Shown piece after piece: positions 25,748 through 37,150 of a stretch of DNA of 64,000 nucleotides (the stretch's first letter is position 1; every line of letters begins with the position of its first letter). The notes under the pieces were generated by a model. It made no database searches, was not told where the DNA came from, and worked only from the letters and a program-made list of their open reading frames with translations. The DNA is from Deltaproteobacteria bacterium RIFCSPHIGHO2_01_FULL_43_49. GTDB taxonomy: Bacteria; UBA10199; SPLOWO2-01-44-7. The stretch spans positions 155,852-219,851 of the forward strand of contig MGRG01000012.1 in the NCBI GenBank assembly GCA_001798075.1. The letters are read 5' to 3'. The translations under genes and the position numbers were made by a program.

Positions 25748-25831
25748 GTAAGGTGACGGGTGGTCGGCGAAGCTGTCAGCCCGATCTGTAGGGAGGGCGT
25801 GCAGCGAGCCGAGCAGGCCCTGTCACCTTAC
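25748..25831. repeat. Palindromic element related to the 69-bp family (core 25758-25820)
   Basis: The core begins GGGTGGTCGGC and ends GCCGAGCAGGCCC, with termini like the main family but a different interior. Perfect 10-bp arms, GTAAGGTGAC (25748-25757) and GTCACCTTAC (25822-25831), bracket it. The arms are unique to this copy. It lies just upstream of the Ser/Thr kinase gene. Confidence 0.8.
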
Positions 25832-25891
25832 AGGACCCATCACCCAACATTTTTAAAAGTTTTGGCACGCAATTTGCTTAGTCAAAGGGGT

Positions 25892-27496
25892 ATGCAACTC
25901 CCTTATTCTTTTGGCCGCTACATTCTCACCAAAAAAATCGCACAAGGAGGGATGGCCGAGATTTTTAAAGCCAAATATCAAGGCGAAAGCGGCTTTTCCA
26001 AAGAGGTTGTCATCAAAAGGTTGCTCCCAATCTGGTCTGATAATCCTGATTTTACGAATATGTTAGTTGATGAGGCGAAAGCACTCGTTCATTTATCCCA
26101 TCCCAATATTGTTCAGGTTTTTGAGCTCGGGAAAGACCAAAAAACCTTTTTTATTTCGATGGAATGGGTCGAAGGAGTTGATTTGAGGCGACTGTTTTTA
26201 AAAGCCACCCAGGAAAATATTGAAATCCCTTTGAAATATACTCTTTTTATTGTTGGTGAGATTCTAAAAGCCCTCGATTTTGCTCATCATAAGAAAAACC
26301 CTAACGGCAATCTCTTGCATATTGTTCATCGAGATATTTCGCCACAAAACATTTTGTTGTCATTGGAAGGGGAGGTGAAAGTAGCCGACTTTGGAATTGC
26401 CAAAGGCCACCATCGCTCGCATGAAACAACGCAAGCTCAAGTTAAAGGGAAATATGCCTATATGTCGCCGGAACAAGCGCGTGGCGAAATGGTGGATGCC
26501 AGAGCCGATATCTATGCGGTGGGCATTCTTTTGTACGAGTTGTTAGAAAAAAGAAGGCTCTTTGATGGTGTGAATGATTTGGCGACTCTGGAGCAGGTTA
26601 GGGAATCGAGACTGCCGAGCGATTGTCTACAACAATGGCCGGGGGCCTTGCGAGCCATCGTATTAAAGGCATTACAACGAAAAGCGAATGATCGTTACCA
26701 AACAGCAGGCGAGTTTTTAAAAGATCTCCTTCGTTTTACAACACAGAGCAATTTGTTGACCAATGCGTTAGAGCTGAGCCTCACTCTAAAAGAGGTTTTT
26801 GAGGGGGAGCTTGTCGAAGAAGGGATGTCTGATGAGCATTCAGTAAACCGCACGCAATCGGAAAAAATCAGAAACGTAAAACCAATTCGTTATGTTTGGA
26901 GATCTGCCGCTTTGCTGGGCTTGGTTTTGACAGTCATTGTACTGATCAAGCCACCCCAAAAAACATCAGCGATTGCCTCTTTTGTCGATACGATTCAGCC
27001 TTCTTTATTAAAGGGTATTCCTTTTAAGGGATCCGTTACGATCGATGCCAGGCCTAGCACTGTTTCTGGAGTTTTAGAGTTTGATGGTTTGCAAAAAAAT
27101 TTTAAAACTCCTTTTCATTTGGCAAATCTCAATGTCGATGAAGAAAAACAGGGTTTAATTCAACTCACAACGGCCGAAGGAAAAATCATTTCTGAAAAGT
27201 TTGTCTTGGGGCCTAAAAATCCAACCTGGGTTAAAACCTTCTATTTTGAAACACCGAAGCCAGGCCAGCTTAAAGTATCCGCAAGACCTTGGGGGCAGGT
27301 CTATGTGCCCGGTGTTTTAGAGGGGAAGGAGACTCCGGTCAGCTCTCTTAGTCTTAAAGATGGTTCTTATGTGGTACGTGTTCACTATCCTCCAACCAAC
27401 CAATGGGTCGAAAAAACAATTCAAATTGCCAGTGGTTCACAAGTTATTTGCCAGGCCGATTTTGGTACTTCCGCCCAGATGACCTGCCGGAAATAA
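25892..27496 (+). CDS. Hanks-type serine/threonine protein kinase with C-terminal extracytoplasmic domain
   Basis: The frame is open from 25760, but that stretch is the palindromic element. The ATG at 25892 starts MQLPYSFGRYILTKKIAQGG directly at the kinase fold. The kinase domain (about residues 8-280) has the glycine loop IAQGGMAEIFKA, VVIKRL, the catalytic loop VHRDISPQN, VADFGIAKG, MSPEQARGE and DIYAVGILLYELL, so it looks active. One membrane helix follows near residues 335-355 (SAALLGLVLTVIVLI). A beta-rich C-terminal region of about 180 residues resembles PEGA-type or other small sensor domains. Ligand and targets are unknown. Confidence 0.9.
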   Translation: MQLPYSFGRYILTKKIAQGGMAEIFKAKYQGESGFSKEVVIKRLLPIWSDNPDFTNMLVDEAKALVHLSHPNIVQVFELGKDQKTFFISMEWVEGVDLRRLFLKATQENIEIPLKYTLFIVGEILKALDFAHHKKNPNGNLLHIVHRDISPQNILLSLEGEVKVADFGIAKGHHRSHETTQAQVKGKYAYMSPEQARGEMVDARADIYAVGILLYELLEKRRLFDGVNDLATLEQVRESRLPSDCLQQWPGALRAIVLKALQRKANDRYQTAGEFLKDLLRFTTQSNLLTNALELSLTLKEVFEGELVEEGMSDEHSVNRTQSEKIRNVKPIRYVWRSAALLGLVLTVIVLIKPPQKTSAIASFVDTIQPSLLKGIPFKGSVTIDARPSTVSGVLEFDGLQKNFKTPFHLANLNVDEEKQGLIQLTTAEGKIISEKFVLGPKNPTWVKTFYFETPKPGQLKVSARPWGQVYVPGVLEGKETPVSSLSLKDGSYVVRVHYPPTNQWVEKTIQIASGSQVICQADFGTSAQMTCRK

Positions 27497-30671: not shown

Positions 30672-33600
30672 GTGCGATTATTTGTTTTGCTTTTCTTTTT
30701 AGTCCTTAGTCCATGGTCATTGCCCCAAAGGGGCCCCTTCGGGGTCCATAGTCCTGCTTTTGCCTCTTCCAATGTTAACTTGGTGACCTCAGAAAATGCC
30801 AAACAAATCGCCGAGGCCTTTCAAATGCCGGGGTTGGGTAAATTCATTGGCGATCAGGCAAAACAAACGTTGGTCAAAGAGGTTGGTAACAAAATAGCAG
30901 AGTGGGCAGCGGAAGGGTTGCACACACTGATTGGACCAAAGACTATGGACCAAGGACCAAAGACCGTGAACATGAAGGAAGCTTTTGCAAAAGATCCGCA
31001 ACTTTCAAAAAAGTTAAAACAAGAAATTCAAAACAAACTTCAAGATTGGCTCCCCAAGATGGCAAAAAAAGCGATCTACGAAGGATTACTCCAAAAAGAG
31101 ATGGTGGGGGATGAAAATTTGGCGGAATTCAAGGAAATCGAAGAAGAAGTGGTTAAAGCCCTCAACACAACCTTCAATGAACAGGCAGAGCATTGGATGG
31201 GTGGTTGGTATGATCGAATGATAGAGGATGTTAAAGATAAATTAGGTCCTGCGGCAACAATTCCGCTCGAGGCATTGCCCCAAATTTTCAAAGGTTCTAT
31301 CGAGCCATTAAGGATCAGTAACCTTTTGGCGAATCAAATTGGCGATGCGATTGGTTCGTCCACTGTGAAGGGGATTCAGAACAACATTTTAAAAGTCCTA
31401 GGTGGGGAATTGCCAGACGAAGCGTTGAAATATTTAAAAATGGGTCCGGAAAAATTTCAAGAATATGCCGAAAAATATAAACAATATTTACCAGCCGCCC
31501 AGTTTGCAAAACTGAAAGATAAAGTGATGGGAATTCACATCGTCGACCTTCCCAACCAAGTTTATGGAGGTATTTTGGCCTCTTCTGCTGCCATGCATTT
31601 GGCTAAAGCATTTGCCGGAATGAAGGTTAATTTTTATGAACTCAAACGCGCCAAAGAGGTCATCGAAACAATGGTTTGGCAACTACGCAACAAAGAAGCA
31701 GTTTCCTTAAACCTGGGCGATTTTTTGGGGATGGTCAGAATGTTGGGCGATCAACTGGGTTCTTTTAACTGGGCTCCTTTAAAACAAGTTGCAAAATGGA
31801 ACCCTGCCAATCAAGTTTTGGAAAAATTGGACTGGTTCGAAAAGCAACTCAAAAAAGTCGATGACCTTTATGATCAAACAACCGGAAAGGTTTTGGAAGG
31901 GTTTGATAAAGCCATCGGCGAAATTGAAGGAGAACTTAAAAAATTTTCAGAAGGATTGCTCTCACCATTTAAAATTCAACCCTACAATTGTATTGTTGCG
32001 GAAGGGTGCTCTGACATTTTTTCTGAATTGCCTAAGCTGGACAATATCTTTGGTGAATGGGGAAACCAAACACCACTCGATTTGCTAAAGAAGTTTTATA
32101 AAGACTCCGGTCTTGAAAAAGATTTAGGACAAACAAACAAAAAGATTGCCGGCGCTTTGGCAGAAGCCGCCACTTGGACAGCAGATGTGCTCAACATTAC
32201 AGGGCCGCTCGCTGAAGTTTTGGATGTGGAAAAAGTACCGGCTCAAAATCCCTCTCAAGATTCCGACTTTGATCCTGTCTTTTTGCACAACGGCGAGTTT
32301 TATTATACGGCAACGGATGTCACGATTCCCGGTCCTTCGACAAGCTCAGGAGACCTCCCATTTCAATTCACTCGCATTTATCGCTCCGCCTCCAATTTCT
32401 TGGGCGTTTTAGGTCACAACTGGACACACAATTTCGCCGAAAAGCTTCTTTGGTGGGACTCGCCAGAAGGTGGAGGGTTTACCTACATCAGTCCTGAAGG
32501 GAAGAAATATTTTTTCAAAAAAGATGAAAAGGGAGGTTTTGTTTCGCCAAAAGATTTGTTTGTTCAGTTAATGGAACAGGGAGATGGTTTTGAAATGTTG
32601 TTTGAAAATGATGAAAAACATTTTTTCAATCGAACAGGAATTTTACAGAGTATTCAAAACAAAGAAGGGAATAAAATCAGTTGTTTTTACAATGAGCAAG
32701 GACAACTCATAAAAATTGAAGACACTTTAGGTAGGACCAACCACTTTTTTTACAAGAAAAATGGTTTGTTGGAGCGCTTCGAAGATTTTAGCGGCAGGGC
32801 TTGGCGTTTTGATTATAATGATGAGGCCGAGTTGATTGCAGCTAGCTCGCCCGGCACGCCCAGTTTTCCAAAGGGAAAAACGACCGGCTATCGTTATCAA
32901 AACCACTCTCCGGGGAGCCACAAAATGACTTTGGTGATGGACCCCAAGGGACAGGTTTATCTCCAGAATTTTTATGGAGTTGATGGAAAAGTTTTGGCTC
33001 AAAATTATGGCAGTGAGGAGATAAAAATCGAAGCTCGTTATGATGGACTCAACACATGGGTGAAGGATCGCCTCAACGTCATGCATCTTTATGAGCACGA
33101 TGAAGAAGGGCATCTGTTGCAACACAGTATTTTGAAGCAAGATGGGGTTTTGAAAAATTTGGGTCCTGCTGGCTTTGGGGCCCATCCCCCCACTCGCTTA
33201 CGCTCGGAGGGGATTATCCCAAAGCCATCACCCAAATTTTTCGATAACGGCAAAATGTATGAATACGATCTGTGGGGGAACGTTATTTCGATTACCGATC
33301 CTCAAGGAAATATCCGCAAGTTTGAAGTCGATGCCTCGAATCTCATCACGAAAGAAATTAATAATGGTGAGGAACGTAGGTATTTTTATGACGCCAATGA
33401 TAATATTATCAAAATTGAAGTCCCCTCCAAAAAGTTGGTGGTTGAGTTTGAGTATGACATGCTCGATCGCATGAGAGTCAAAAAAGAATATTTAAGCCCA
33501 ACACATGTCATCACAACCCGTTTTGAATACAATCCACGAGATCAACTAACTCGTGTTGTTTATCCAATGGGAAATGAGATGCGTTTTGAATATGATGATG

Positions 33601-36119
33601 AGGAAAACCTCGTTAAAAAAGGTGAGGAGGTTTATGAATACGATAATGAAGGGCATTTAATTGCTGTTAGCAACAGTGTGGGCGAAAAAACTCAATTTCA
33701 ATATGATGAAAATGGAAATTTAATCGATGTGATTTCACCGCTGGGCAATCGGGAGAAATACGAATGGGACTCCAAAAACGAAATTGTTTCTAAAAAATAT
33801 TTTGATGTCGAAGGAAACTTATTAGCAGCCGCAACGCCCACAAGCCGTCTTCTTTTCCGTGACAATCCAAAAAAAGGGAGCTGGATTAAAAGTGAGGAGT
33901 CATCGCGAGCCCTTCGACAAGTCTCAGGACAGGCTCCGCGAAGCGATCCACGGGAGATTGCTTCGTCGCAGCCCGCCACGCTTCGCTCGCGGCTTCGGCT
34001 CCTCGCAATGACAAACTATGACACGATCGGCAGACCGCTTTCTATTCAAGATGTGCAACTAGAGTGGGATGACAATGGAAGATTAACTTCTTTAACAGAC
34101 AAAGAGGGTCTCAAAACGATCTATTCTTATGATGGGTTAAACCATCTCACTTTGGAACATTATCCAAACAACTCTGAGATTGCTTATGAATATGATACCG
34201 TCGGTCGTTTAATCAGCATGAAGGATCGCAGTCAAAATCTTCATCAGTTTACCTACGACAAAGAGGGGCATTTAATTTTCAGAAAAGTAAATGCTTATGA
34301 ACAGCGTTTTGTCTATGACGGTCTGGGGCGCTTGGTGGAGGCTAGAGACCTCAATGACCCAAAAGATTCCGGCGATGATGTGACAATCAAATTGGCTTAT
34401 GATTCTCTCTCAAGATTGATTGCCGAGTCAATCAATGGTCGTCTCGTTTCCAAAAATTATGATGAAAAAGATCGTAAGGTACAGGTGCGATATCCTTCTG
34501 GGTTTTCGATTGTTCGCAATTTTGATTCCAAAAACAATCTTGCCGAAATTTTCGCGGATGGTTTTGCCCTGGCACGTTTCCAGTATGATGAACAAGGAAA
34601 GGCAAAGCAAATGGAATGGGGCAATGCGGTTAAGTTGGAACAAAGATATGATGATAGGCAACGCTTGACCGAACAATCATTTAACTTCCCCACAAAAGAA
34701 TCTCCAACCATTTGGCAATATGCCTATAGGGAAGATGGAAAACTGGCAGGGTTTGAATATACAACGGATGGAGGGTTGATGACTCCTCAGGGTTTGCAAG
34801 CTGGCGATATTCAGCGAGATGTTGCTGGAAATTTAACTCAGGATGACCGTTTTCAATATGAATATGATCCTTTTGGGCGTTTGGTTGCTGTGCGCTCCTT
34901 AACCCATGAACTTTTGGCACGCTATTCCTATGATCCATTCAACCGTCTCGTCAGAAAAGAATTGCCGACGCAAAAAAGAAAAGTCGATTATATTTATGAT
35001 GATTGGCACGCCATTGAGACTTATGAAAATAATGCGCTATCTCAAAGCATCATTTTTGGTGAGAGTTTGGATCAACCGATTGCTTTACTGGCAGCTGACG
35101 ACCGACAACTGACGACTTATTATTATTATCACACCGATCGGCTCGGTTCCGTTCGGTTTTTAACAGACAAGAGCGGAGCTGTTGCAGAGTCGTATGAATA
35201 TAGTCCTTTTGGAGAAAGAATGGGTGAATCTCAAATCGGAAATGAATTGGGTTTTATTGGAAGACCCCATGAAATGCTAACCGGTTTAGTCAATTTGCGA
35301 CACCGCTACTACTCACCAGCCCTCAGAGAATTTTTGACCGCAGACCCTTTGGGCTACAAAAACGATTTTTACGCTGCTTCCACCGTTTTCACTCCCAGAA
35401 ATTTTTCTTATCATCAAGGCCAAGGGGGTGCTTCCAGAACGACGTATCCCAATTATGTCGAACAAGATGGCGAAATTTCTCTTTTAGATATCGATTTGTT
35501 TTATGAAAAAGAATCGGCACCTGCCCCAACTCCAGAAATGAATCTCTACGCCTACGCCGGCGGCGATCCCGTCAACTTTTTCGATCCGTTGGGACTTTAT
35601 AAAATCATGGTCACACTTCCACAGTATATTGCGGGAAAGGACAATCGTCGCAATCTTGGCCAATTGACATTATTTGATGAGAAAGGAGACTTGGCTGTTG
35701 GGCCTTTTCAAGTGCTTGGACGCTCTAGTAATAAGTGGTGGGATAAGGAGATTAAAAAGACCGTCTATAATCCAAATAAGGGTAGGGATCCTGTTAAAAA
35801 GTTTGGCGATACACCTACGGGAACTTATGGGGTTGAAATTATTACCCATCCTAATGATTCTACCTATGGGCCTCATTTCATTAAATTGGATCCAACCGGC
35901 GGGGATGCCTTGGTTGCAGAGGCAAATGGAAGAGCGGGGATAGGAATTCATGGTGGGGGTACGAATCCCATTTTTGGGAATGGAAAATTTAGCTCTACAA
36001 AGGGTTGTGTTAGAATGTTGGACGGAGATATTCAATTGTTGGTCAAGAGGATAAATGAATTAAAAACAGTGGGTGATACAGAAGGCACGGTGAACATTGC
36101 AGAATATGAAAATCATTAA
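30672..36119 (+). CDS. RHS/YD-repeat protein with C-terminal L,D-transpeptidase-like toxin domain
   Basis: An 1815-residue polymorphic-toxin-like protein with a GTG start. A Sec-type signal peptide (about 1-33, ending PAFASS) is followed by about 500 helical residues of unknown fold. A DUF6531-type entry follows (DPVFLHNGEFYYTATDVTIPG), then the RHS shell with many YD repeats such as YEYDNEGHL and YDPFGRLVAV. The RHS core end is RHRYYSPALREFLTADPLG, and the pre-toxin motif is FFDPLGLY. The last 172 residues (1644-1815) hold GIGIHGGG (His1760) and SSTKGCVRM (Cys1779), the catalytic His/Cys signature of YkuD L,D-transpeptidases. Peptidoglycan crosslinking or editing as the toxic activity is inferred. 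The gene contains several repeat insertions. A candidate immunity gene follows with a 14-bp overlap. Confidence 0.88.
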   Translation: MRLFVLLFFLVLSPWSLPQRGPFGVHSPAFASSNVNLVTSENAKQIAEAFQMPGLGKFIGDQAKQTLVKEVGNKIAEWAAEGLHTLIGPKTMDQGPKTVNMKEAFAKDPQLSKKLKQEIQNKLQDWLPKMAKKAIYEGLLQKEMVGDENLAEFKEIEEEVVKALNTTFNEQAEHWMGGWYDRMIEDVKDKLGPAATIPLEALPQIFKGSIEPLRISNLLANQIGDAIGSSTVKGIQNNILKVLGGELPDEALKYLKMGPEKFQEYAEKYKQYLPAAQFAKLKDKVMGIHIVDLPNQVYGGILASSAAMHLAKAFAGMKVNFYELKRAKEVIETMVWQLRNKEAVSLNLGDFLGMVRMLGDQLGSFNWAPLKQVAKWNPANQVLEKLDWFEKQLKKVDDLYDQTTGKVLEGFDKAIGEIEGELKKFSEGLLSPFKIQPYNCIVAEGCSDIFSELPKLDNIFGEWGNQTPLDLLKKFYKDSGLEKDLGQTNKKIAGALAEAATWTADVLNITGPLAEVLDVEKVPAQNPSQDSDFDPVFLHNGEFYYTATDVTIPGPSTSSGDLPFQFTRIYRSASNFLGVLGHNWTHNFAEKLLWWDSPEGGGFTYISPEGKKYFFKKDEKGGFVSPKDLFVQLMEQGDGFEMLFENDEKHFFNRTGILQSIQNKEGNKISCFYNEQGQLIKIEDTLGRTNHFFYKKNGLLERFEDFSGRAWRFDYNDEAELIAASSPGTPSFPKGKTTGYRYQNHSPGSHKMTLVMDPKGQVYLQNFYGVDGKVLAQNYGSEEIKIEARYDGLNTWVKDRLNVMHLYEHDEEGHLLQHSILKQDGVLKNLGPAGFGAHPPTRLRSEGIIPKPSPKFFDNGKMYEYDLWGNVISITDPQGNIRKFEVDASNLITKEINNGEERRYFYDANDNIIKIEVPSKKLVVEFEYDMLDRMRVKKEYLSPTHVITTRFEYNPRDQLTRVVYPMGNEMRFEYDDEENLVKKGEEVYEYDNEGHLIAVSNSVGEKTQFQYDENGNLIDVISPLGNREKYEWDSKNEIVSKKYFDVEGNLLAAATPTSRLLFRDNPKKGSWIKSEESSRALRQVSGQAPRSDPREIASSQPATLRSRLRLLAMTNYDTIGRPLSIQDVQLEWDDNGRLTSLTDKEGLKTIYSYDGLNHLTLEHYPNNSEIAYEYDTVGRLISMKDRSQNLHQFTYDKEGHLIFRKVNAYEQRFVYDGLGRLVEARDLNDPKDSGDDVTIKLAYDSLSRLIAESINGRLVSKNYDEKDRKVQVRYPSGFSIVRNFDSKNNLAEIFADGFALARFQYDEQGKAKQMEWGNAVKLEQRYDDRQRLTEQSFNFPTKESPTIWQYAYREDGKLAGFEYTTDGGLMTPQGLQAGDIQRDVAGNLTQDDRFQYEYDPFGRLVAVRSLTHELLARYSYDPFNRLVRKELPTQKRKVDYIYDDWHAIETYENNALSQSIIFGESLDQPIALLAADDRQLTTYYYYHTDRLGSVRFLTDKSGAVAESYEYSPFGERMGESQIGNELGFIGRPHEMLTGLVNLRHRYYSPALREFLTADPLGYKNDFYAASTVFTPRNFSYHQGQGGASRTTYPNYVEQDGEISLLDIDLFYEKESAPAPTPEMNLYAYAGGDPVNFFDPLGLYKIMVTLPQYIAGKDNRRNLGQLTLFDEKGDLAVGPFQVLGRSSNKWWDKEIKKTVYNPNKGRDPVKKFGDTPTGTYGVEIITHPNDSTYGPHFIKLDPTGGDALVAEANGRAGIGIHGGGTNPIFGNGKFSSTKGCVRMLDGDIQLLVKRINELKTVGDTEGTVNIAEYENH
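30701..30754. repeat. Heptad array with nested palindrome in the RHS signal-peptide region
   Basis: AGTCCTT, AGTCCAT and GGTCATT units, then CCCCAAAGGGG and CCCCTTCGGGG mini-palindromes, then GGTCCAT and AGTCCTG. All are read in frame in the c-region of the signal peptide. Confidence 0.8.
30931..30965. repeat. Heptanucleotide array in the RHS gene
   Basis: TTGGACC, AAAGACT, ATGGACC, AAGGACC and AAAGACC: five degenerate 7-bp units translated as GPKTMDQGPKTV. Confidence 0.85.
33172..33225. repeat. In-frame palindromic insert 1 in the RHS gene
   Basis: GCTTTGGG (33172-33179) and CCCAAAGC (33218-33225) are the ends of a 54-bp imperfect palindrome. It adds 18 codons (GAHPPTRLRSEGIIP) between YD repeats. 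Confidence 0.75.
33899..34012. repeat. In-frame palindromic insert 2 in the RHS gene
   Basis: GTCATCGCGAG (33899-33909) and CTCGCAATGAC (34002-34012) bound a 114-bp (38-codon) element containing TTCGACAAG and AGGCTCCGCGAAGCGAT stretches. I have seen very similar dispersed palindromes in many uncultured bacterial genomes. The translation, Arg/Ser rich (RALRQVSGQAPRS), interrupts the YD-repeat pattern. Confidence 0.85.
35092..35119. repeat. Heptanucleotide array in the RHS gene, C-terminal third
   Basis: AGCTGAC, GACCGAC, AACTGAC, GACTTAT: four 7-bp units translated as ADDRQLTTY, just before the HTDRLGSVR core motif. Confidence 0.75.
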
Positions 36120-36561
36120 AACACTTTTATTTTGTTTTGTTTGTTTCTTTAGTTTTTCCGCTACGGCGGACGAGAGTTGCAAAAAAGGGCATCTTGATTT
36201 GCCTGGGAAATGTAGTGATTATCGTTGTGAAAAATTGGATGCAAAAGCTTGGGAAGCTTTGCTAGAAAGGGCCGGGCGTTATCGAAAAACTCTCTCTTGG
36301 GACAATTCACAACAGTGGGAGGCTGATGTAGAGCTTCTGAAAAATTGTGCCATTGCTGGAAGATCAGAGGCATTGCACGAGCTATTCTTATTGGCAGATC
36401 ACGTGGATGGGGTGTTTGTCGATGTCCTTGGAACGATGTTATCTCAAGTTATACATGCTCAGCCTACGCTGTATAGAAGGCAGTTGAAGAAAGAGCCAAG
36501 GAAAATCAGAGAGATCGTTGAATTTATCAGAGTGGCGGGCACAAGTGATCCTATCGATTGA
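36106..36561 (+). CDS. Secreted small protein, candidate immunity protein for the RHS toxin
   Basis: The ATG at 36106 (inside the RHS 3' end, 14-bp overlap) begins a Sec signal peptide (MKIIKTLLFCFVCFFSFSAT, cleavage after ATA). A mature, mostly helical protein of about 130 residues follows, with three cysteines near its N-terminus (ESCKKG, GKC, YRC). I recognise no family. Its position directly after an RHS toxin tip and its predicted periplasmic location are what an immunity protein against a peptidoglycan-active L,D-transpeptidase domain would need. An in-frame TTG at 36097 is an alternative start. Immunity function is inferred from context only. Confidence 0.72.
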   Translation: MKIIKTLLFCFVCFFSFSATADESCKKGHLDLPGKCSDYRCEKLDAKAWEALLERAGRYRKTLSWDNSQQWEADVELLKNCAIAGRSEALHELFLLADHVDGVFVDVLGTMLSQVIHAQPTLYRRQLKKEPRKIREIVEFIRVAGTSDPID

Positions 36562-36586: not shown

Positions 36587-36595
36587 CATATGCAT
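36565..36595 (+). promoter_or_regulatory. Probable VapB operator
   Basis: A perfect 10-bp inverted repeat, ATGCATATGA (36565-36574) and TCATATGCAT (36586-36595), spans the -10 box and touches the start codon. This is where an autoregulatory ribbon-helix-helix VapB/VapBC complex would bind. Confidence 0.55.
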
Positions 36596-36785
36596 GAGAA
36601 CAACATTAAATATGGATGACAAACTATACGAAGAAGCCGCCAAAGCGACTGGTGTAACGGAGAAAACTCAGTTGATTCATATGGGGCTTAAGGCACTTAT
36701 TCAAGACGCCGCTTATAAACGTCTGGCAAAACTCCATGGGGCGATTCCGCAGGCCAAGGCACCGAGACGTCGCAGGATCAAATGA
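36594..36785 (+). CDS. vapB: Type II antitoxin, VapB family
   Basis: 63 residues. The N-terminus MRTTLNMDDKLYEEAAKATG followed by EKTQLIHMGLKALI is the ribbon-helix-helix DNA-binding fold of the DUF2191-type VapB antitoxins. The C-terminal AKAPRRRRIK tail would wrap the toxin. The stop overlaps the vapC start in ATGA. The start has no Shine-Dalgarno sequence, and the promoter places transcription start at the ATG. Confidence 0.9.
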   Translation: MRTTLNMDDKLYEEAAKATGVTEKTQLIHMGLKALIQDAAYKRLAKLHGAIPQAKAPRRRRIK

Positions 36786-37150
36786 TATTGGTCGATACGA
36801 GTATTTGGATTGATTTTTTTCGGGATGAGAGAAAAGCTGTCATTTTGCCAGAACTGTTGAGTGAAAAACGGGTTTGTATCCATCCGTGGATTTTTGGCGA
36901 ATTAATGATGGGTGATTTGGGCATTCAAAGAGAAGTTATTCTTGATGACCTAACATCTCTTCATCAGCTTCCAATTCATGATATTAGCGAGCTCTCTGAT
37001 TTTGTAGAAAATGAAAAGTTGTTTGGAAGAGGTTTATCATTCATTGATGCCCAATTAATTTACTCCTGTCTTTTGCATGACTGTTTTCTTTGGACAAAAG
37101 ATCATGCGTTAAACCTCCTTGCGAAACGATATAAGAAGTCCTATTTATGA
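36782..37150 (+). CDS. vapC: PIN-domain ribonuclease toxin, VapC family
   Basis: 122 residues with the four acidic PIN positions visible: ILVDTSIWIDFF (Asp5), GELMMG (Glu), SFIDAQLIYS (Asp) and WTKDHALNLL (Asp). These coordinate the metal for site-specific cleavage of tRNA or rRNA. It is coupled to vapB by a 4-bp overlap. uvrB begins 3 bp after its stop, so the TA pair has slotted in directly before a repair gene. Confidence 0.92.
   Translation: MILVDTSIWIDFFRDERKAVILPELLSEKRVCIHPWIFGELMMGDLGIQREVILDDLTSLHQLPIHDISELSDFVENEKLFGRGLSFIDAQLIYSCLLHDCFLWTKDHALNLLAKRYKKSYL

What the first reader, a model, noticed from the sequence alone, without database searches (positions are those of the whole stretch)
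30672..36561. RHS toxin with an L,D-transpeptidase-like tip, Sec signal, and a periplasmic candidate immunity protein
After the DPLGLY pre-toxin motif, the last 172 residues carry the His (GIHGGG) and Cys (STKGCVRM) of YkuD-type L,D-transpeptidases. L,D-transpeptidase-like toxins (Tlde1 family) are known as type VI effectors, but an RHS-delivered one behind a Sec signal peptide is unusual. The next gene overlaps by 14 bp and encodes a small secreted protein, in the compartment where a peptidoglycan-editing toxin would need to be neutralised.
Basis: partly seen in the sequence, partly recalled or inferred. Interest (0 to 1): 0.74.

Follow-up and report, generated by a model that had tools for sequence, protein, structure and literature searches.

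The report
RHS toxin with cell-wall peptidase tip
This bacterium carries a large secreted RHS-type toxin whose last ~170 residues are an enzyme of the kind that edits the bacterial cell wall, followed by a small secreted protein that probably protects the producer; the toxin type has been on record since 2012, but this lineage and its partner protein families look new.

Summary
ORF 30672-36119 (1815 aa) has an N-terminal signal-like sequence, a helical domain, an RHS shell and DPLGLY. Its C-terminal tip scores above the Pfam YkuD cut-off, and AlphaFold gives a YkuD fold (pLDDT 88) closest to LD-carboxypeptidases (Csd6, Pgp2) and the toxin Tlde1a. His1760 and Cys1779 lie in invariant columns. 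The next gene (36106-36561) overlaps by 14 bp and encodes a secreted all-helical protein.

Comparison adds that the RHS gene is an orthologue at a conserved place in its family, but the tip was swapped: the core tree holds the family together, and an AU test rejects one clade for its tips (p 0.0002). The downstream gene switched too: three genomes with tip type A carry the window's partner family, three with type B an unrelated secreted family. This supports a toxin-immunity cassette.

No T6SS sheath gene was found, so T6SS delivery is unlikely. Toxicity, protection and delivery are untested. It is a new member of a known kind, with apparently new immunity families. Nearest non-RHS tip relatives are stand-alone proteins of Mu-like phages and plasmids.

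The parts
30672..36119 (+). RHS toxin gene, 1815 aa, GTG start
   Evidence: ORF and Pfam/NCBIfam matches; full-length orthologues in relatives
30672..30767 (+). signal-like N-terminus, residues 1-32 (MRLFVLLFFLVLSPWSL...SPAFA)
   Evidence: most hydrophobic stretch of the protein; similar N-termini in G036, G034, G037; cleavage site inferred
30768..32270 (+). helical-looking N-terminal domain, residues 33-533, lineage-specific, no Pfam match
   Evidence: no Pfam family; conserved in 14 of 46 genomes of the phylum beyond the DUF6531 end
32271..35366 (+). DUF6531, RHS repeats and RHS-associated core, residues 534-1565: predicted shell
35583..35597 (+). DPLGL pre-toxin motif, residues 1638-1642; predicted autocleavage after it
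   Evidence: sequence; cleavage inferred from other RHS proteins, from memory
35598..36116 (+). toxin tip, residues 1643-1815, YkuD / LD-transpeptidase fold
   Evidence: Pfam, AlphaFold pLDDT 88, Foldseek
35949..35951 (+). catalytic His1760 codon
   Evidence: invariant column in 9 and 10 relatives
36006..36008 (+). catalytic Cys1779 codon
   Evidence: invariant column in 9 and 10 relatives
36106..36561 (+). candidate periplasmic immunity protein (partner family 1), 151 aa, overlapping the toxin gene by 14 bp
   Evidence: homologues in the same position in G035 and G036; all-helical model

Best explanation
A Sec-exported RHS polymorphic toxin of the Tox-LD-peptidase kind. The signal sequence takes the protein out of the cytoplasm; the RHS repeats form a shell that holds the C-terminal domain; cleavage after DPLGL frees a ~173-residue YkuD-fold cysteine enzyme (His1760/Cys1779). 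In the wall of a competing cell this enzyme hydrolyses or exchanges at the L-D bond after residue 3 of the peptidoglycan stem (LD-carboxypeptidase or exchange activity is most likely) and weakens the wall. The overlapping downstream gene makes a periplasmic all-helical protein that binds the tip and protects the producer. Tip and partner form a cassette that is swapped at a fixed chromosomal place. Shown here by computation: architecture, predicted fold, kept catalytic residues, tip swapping, partner switching. Inferred: autocleavage, wall as substrate, toxicity, protection. Unknown: how the protein crosses the producer's and the target's outer membrane.
For: YkuD above the curated cut-off; confident YkuD-fold model whose nearest solved folds are Csd6, Pgp2, YkuD and Tlde1a, with Pgp2 and Csd6 first by sequence profile too. 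His and Cys invariant in relatives. Core tree keeps family f1 together (SH-aLRT 100) while one clade for its tips is rejected (AU p 0.00023). Tip type A goes with partner family 1 in 3 genomes, tip type B with the unrelated secreted family 2 in 3 genomes. One orthologue at the same place ends in an HExxH zincin-like tip. Other RHS genes of the same genome have other tips. Zhang et al. 2012 predict the same action for such tips.
Against: No experiment. Partner genes are absent after the tips of G037, G006 and G008, so immunity is not always adjacent. The gene sits at a conserved, vertically inherited place beside uvrB and a kinase, and some orthologues lack a tip, so the RHS protein may have a second role. 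Three genomes per partner family is few. TM scores to solved structures are moderate (0.4-0.55). The tip clade was named after an earlier tree had been seen, so the AU p value is optimistic.
Confidence: 0.72

Rival explanations
1. A self-acting envelope protein: the LD-transpeptidase domain acts on the producer's own wall, to anchor the RHS protein covalently to peptidoglycan or to open the wall for its release, and is not a toxin.
For: The locus is conserved and vertically inherited next to housekeeping genes; several LD-peptidase-tipped orthologues have no partner gene; YkuD enzymes are known to attach proteins to peptidoglycan and to assist protein release (PMC12729407).
Against: Tips were exchanged while the core was kept; one orthologue has a zincin-like tip instead; secreted partners switch with the tip, which a self-anchor would not need.
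Confidence: 0.15
2. The tip is a toxin, but the 36106 protein is not its immunity protein; it could be a chaperone, a regulator of the enzyme in the producer, or an unrelated secreted gene.
For: No known immunity family matches; homologues exist in only three genomes; a family-2 relative in G012 stands without any such tip.
Against: Position, overlap, secretion and co-switching with tip type in six genomes.
Confidence: 0.1
3. A T6SS-delivered effector of the Tlde1 family proper.
For: Tlde1a is among the nearest folds.
Against: No T6SS sheath gene in a 98% complete genome; N-terminal signal-like segment; no T6SS domain in the Pfam list of the protein; no Tlde1-type Pfam family listed for the tip.
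Confidence: 0.03

Closest known systems
Tox-LD-peptidase of RHS polymorphic toxins (Zhang et al. 2012, PMC3482391)
   Same: YkuD/LD-peptidase domain at the C-terminus of an RHS protein, export by Sec/T2SS among the routes, linked immunity gene, predicted wall attack
   Different: Linked immunity families there are Imm16 and Imm57; neither is detected here. The N-terminal domain has no Pfam family.
Tlde1 / Tlde1a, T6SS LD-transpeptidase effectors of Salmonella (PMC9638812)
   Same: LD-transpeptidase fold with catalytic His and Cys; Tlde1a has the best two-sided TM score among the listed PDB matches (0.55/0.55); adjacent immunity gene
   Different: Delivered by T6SS there; no T6SS sheath gene here; 14% identity; residue before GC is Lys instead of His in the window
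LD-carboxypeptidases Csd6 (Helicobacter) and Pgp2 (Campylobacter)
   Same: Top sequence-profile and Foldseek matches
   Different: Housekeeping cell-shape enzymes, not on RHS proteins, 17% identity
Stand-alone LD-transpeptidase-like proteins of Mu-like phages and of Paenibacillus and Rhizobium plasmids (L091-L096, L090, L032, L033)
   Same: Group with tip A in the tip tree; about 32-41% identity to the tip
   Different: No RHS and no homologue of the partner families seen beside them; function untested

Membership tests
RHS polymorphic toxin | RHS repeats, RHS-associated core and a DPxGL motif before the C-terminal domain | tested here: met
RHS polymorphic toxin | C-terminal domain exchanged among orthologues | tested here: met
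   tip and core trees conflict, AU p 0.00023; zincin-like tip in G024
RHS polymorphic toxin | Linked immunity gene that protects | tested here: inconclusive
   linked secreted gene co-varies with tip type; protection not tested; absent in G037, G006, G008
Tox-LD-peptidase (Zhang et al. 2012) | LD-peptidase (YkuD) fold with conserved His, Ser/Thr and Cys | tested here: met
Tox-LD-peptidase (Zhang et al. 2012) | Immunity partner Imm16 or Imm57 | tested here: not met
   no Pfam match at E 10 beyond an insignificant one; no Imm57 in the genome. The pairing is an association in the paper, not a strict definition.
Tlde1 | Delivery by a T6SS | tested here: not met
   no TssB/VipA in the genome
Tlde1 | LD-transpeptidase fold with altered active site and capping subdomain | tested here: inconclusive
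   fold related, TM 0.55; capping subdomain not examined
YkuD LD-transpeptidase / carboxypeptidase | Cleavage or exchange at the L-D bond of the stem peptide | not testable with these tools
   needs a muropeptide assay

The most novel reading that the evidence does not exclude
Two unrelated, undescribed families of periplasmic immunity proteins (all-helical family 1 and family 2) each pair with one of two LD-peptidase tip types at the same chromosomal place, and tip type A was recruited from stand-alone LD-transpeptidase-like proteins of Mu-like phages or plasmids, where it may serve in host lysis.
Probability: 0.3. Interest if true: 0.55.

Novelty: new member of a known kind. Interest (0 to 1): 0.42.

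Why it matters
It turns a tabulated 2012 prediction (RHS LD-peptidase toxins) into a concrete case in a little-known lineage. Secreted partners that switch together with the tip are a comparative hint of periplasmic immunity, and the two tip-partner types allow a direct cross-neutralisation test. It also links RHS wall-editing toxins with phage-borne LD-transpeptidase-like proteins.

Tried and rejected
First single-sequence scan of genome contigs found no relative; the 9-row alignment was too diverse for the scan; a 5-row alignment worked. phmmer of the tip alone against the PDB gave only chance hits; the 10-row profile gave LD-transpeptidases. PHROGs and PADLOC gave nothing for tip or partner. 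The partner model matched no solved fold beyond generic helical-repeat proteins. Idea that partner families 1 and 2 are remote kin: rejected, the profile match covers only the signal region. Idea that the 246-aa protein before a family-2 relative in G042 (motif HIHKGG...SKGC) is a tip relative: no profile support. My first reading that G035 and G036 lack a partner gene was wrong (an ORF filter had dropped it); corrected.

Full report
What is there. The ORF at 30672-36119 encodes 1815 residues from a GTG start, and the ORF at 36106-36561 encodes 151 residues and overlaps it by 14 bp. Pfam finds DUF6531, RHS repeats and YkuD (29.8 bits against a cut-off of 23.4); NCBIfam adds the RHS-associated core. 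The tip alone scores 34.6 bits to YkuD. The N-terminus is the most hydrophobic stretch of the protein, and the same is true of the downstream protein.

Fold. With ten relatives AlphaFold gives mean pLDDT 88 and pTM 0.85 for the tip. All leading Foldseek matches in the PDB are YkuD-fold enzymes: Csd6, Pgp2, B. subtilis YkuD, Tlde1a, DpaA and, lower, Bd1075. The best two-sided TM score is Tlde1a (0.55/0.55). TM scores are moderate and rmsd is mostly 5-6 A, so loops and cap differ. A sequence profile independently ranks Pgp2 and Csd6 first, E about 1e-4 to 1e-3. Several of these enzymes are known to me as hydrolases or carboxypeptidases, which is why I lean to LD-carboxypeptidase or exchange activity; that is inference.

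Relatives and place. In the phylum (46 genomes) the tip type occurs only on one RHS orthologue. Two of those genomes are recorded as Deltaproteobacteria MAGs. In family f1 the gene lies between a Ser/Thr kinase and uvrB, a porin-like gene and uvrC (uvrB, uvrC and porin named from sequence). A query of 568 residues (N-terminal domain plus DUF6531) matches 17 of 46 genomes, but G021, G027 and G045 match only at the DUF6531 end. Other orthologues end in a more divergent YkuD-like tip (G006, G007, G008; the G008 tip stays just below the Pfam cut-off), an HExxH zincin-like tip (G024), or a broken or missing tip (G033, G001).

Tip swapping. In the core tree the six f1 proteins form one side of a branch with SH-aLRT 100. 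In the tip tree the f1 tips fall in separate places, and holding them together is rejected (AU p 0.00023). Tip A (window, G035, G036) groups with plasmid and phage stand-alone proteins; tip B (G034, G037) lies near G020 and G022. Within the core tree the A and B carriers also form two subgroups, so one swap inside f1 is enough. The tip tree rests on 186 columns and long branches, and the clade was named after an earlier tree had been seen, so the p value is optimistic.

Partner switching. Homologues of the window's 151-aa protein lie right after the tip in G035 and G036. G034, G020 and G022 have instead a 173-177-aa secreted protein of another family. Profiles of the two families match only in the signal region. 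G037, G006 and G008 have no such gene after the tip. The window's partner is predicted as an all-helical bundle with confident core (pLDDT about 90 and above) and no specific match in the PDB. One family-2 relative (G042) follows a 246-aa protein with a HIHKGG...SKGC motif, and another (G012) follows nothing similar, so family 2 is not exclusively tied to RHS.

Delivery. No T6SS sheath gene is found. Three secretin genes exist, so a secretin-based route after Sec is possible but unshown. The same genome has further RHS genes with other tips.

Known or new. Zhang et al. 2012 describe Tox-LD-peptidase on RHS toxins, with Sec/T2SS among the export routes, linked immunity genes (Imm16, Imm57) and the same predicted action. 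Tlde1 is a T6SS family with a related fold. This locus is therefore a new member of a known kind. The partner families have no significant Pfam match and appear new.

Phage link. Stand-alone tip relatives occur in viral contigs and in a prophage-like contig with Mu GemA, DUF2730-like and Gp27 genes. Their neighbourhood suggests a lysis role, but this was not tested and none matched a PHROG.

Noticed in passing
window 25760-27496; L035, L085, L075, L077, L079, L080: A Ser/Thr protein kinase gene lies directly or closely upstream of this RHS orthologue in most of the class, even where the RHS tip is missing; a functional link is possible.
   Followed up: partly
L091, L092, L093 (also L094-L096): Mu-like phage and other viral contigs carry stand-alone relatives of the tip, possibly lysis proteins.
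   Followed up: partly
window 33899-34012: A 114-bp repeat-like insert sits in frame inside the RHS core; 27-nt stretches of it recur twice elsewhere in the genome.
   Followed up: partly
window 36594-37150: A VapB antitoxin and PIN-domain toxin pair lies between the partner gene and uvrB; G034 keeps a VapB-like gene at the same place.
   Followed up: no
L119 6927-8238: A 246-aa protein with HIHKGG...SKGC is followed 4 bp later by a family-2 partner relative; perhaps another cysteine-enzyme toxin and immunity pair without RHS, but no profile similarity to the tip.
   Followed up: partly
L041 2868-9646 and L042 5669-15724: The same genome has other large RHS genes with different, unnamed C-terminal domains.
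   Followed up: partly
G036: L034, L036, L085: G036 shows two partly different copies of the tip on contig ends (81% identical where they overlap), from a paralogue or a mixed strain.
   Followed up: no
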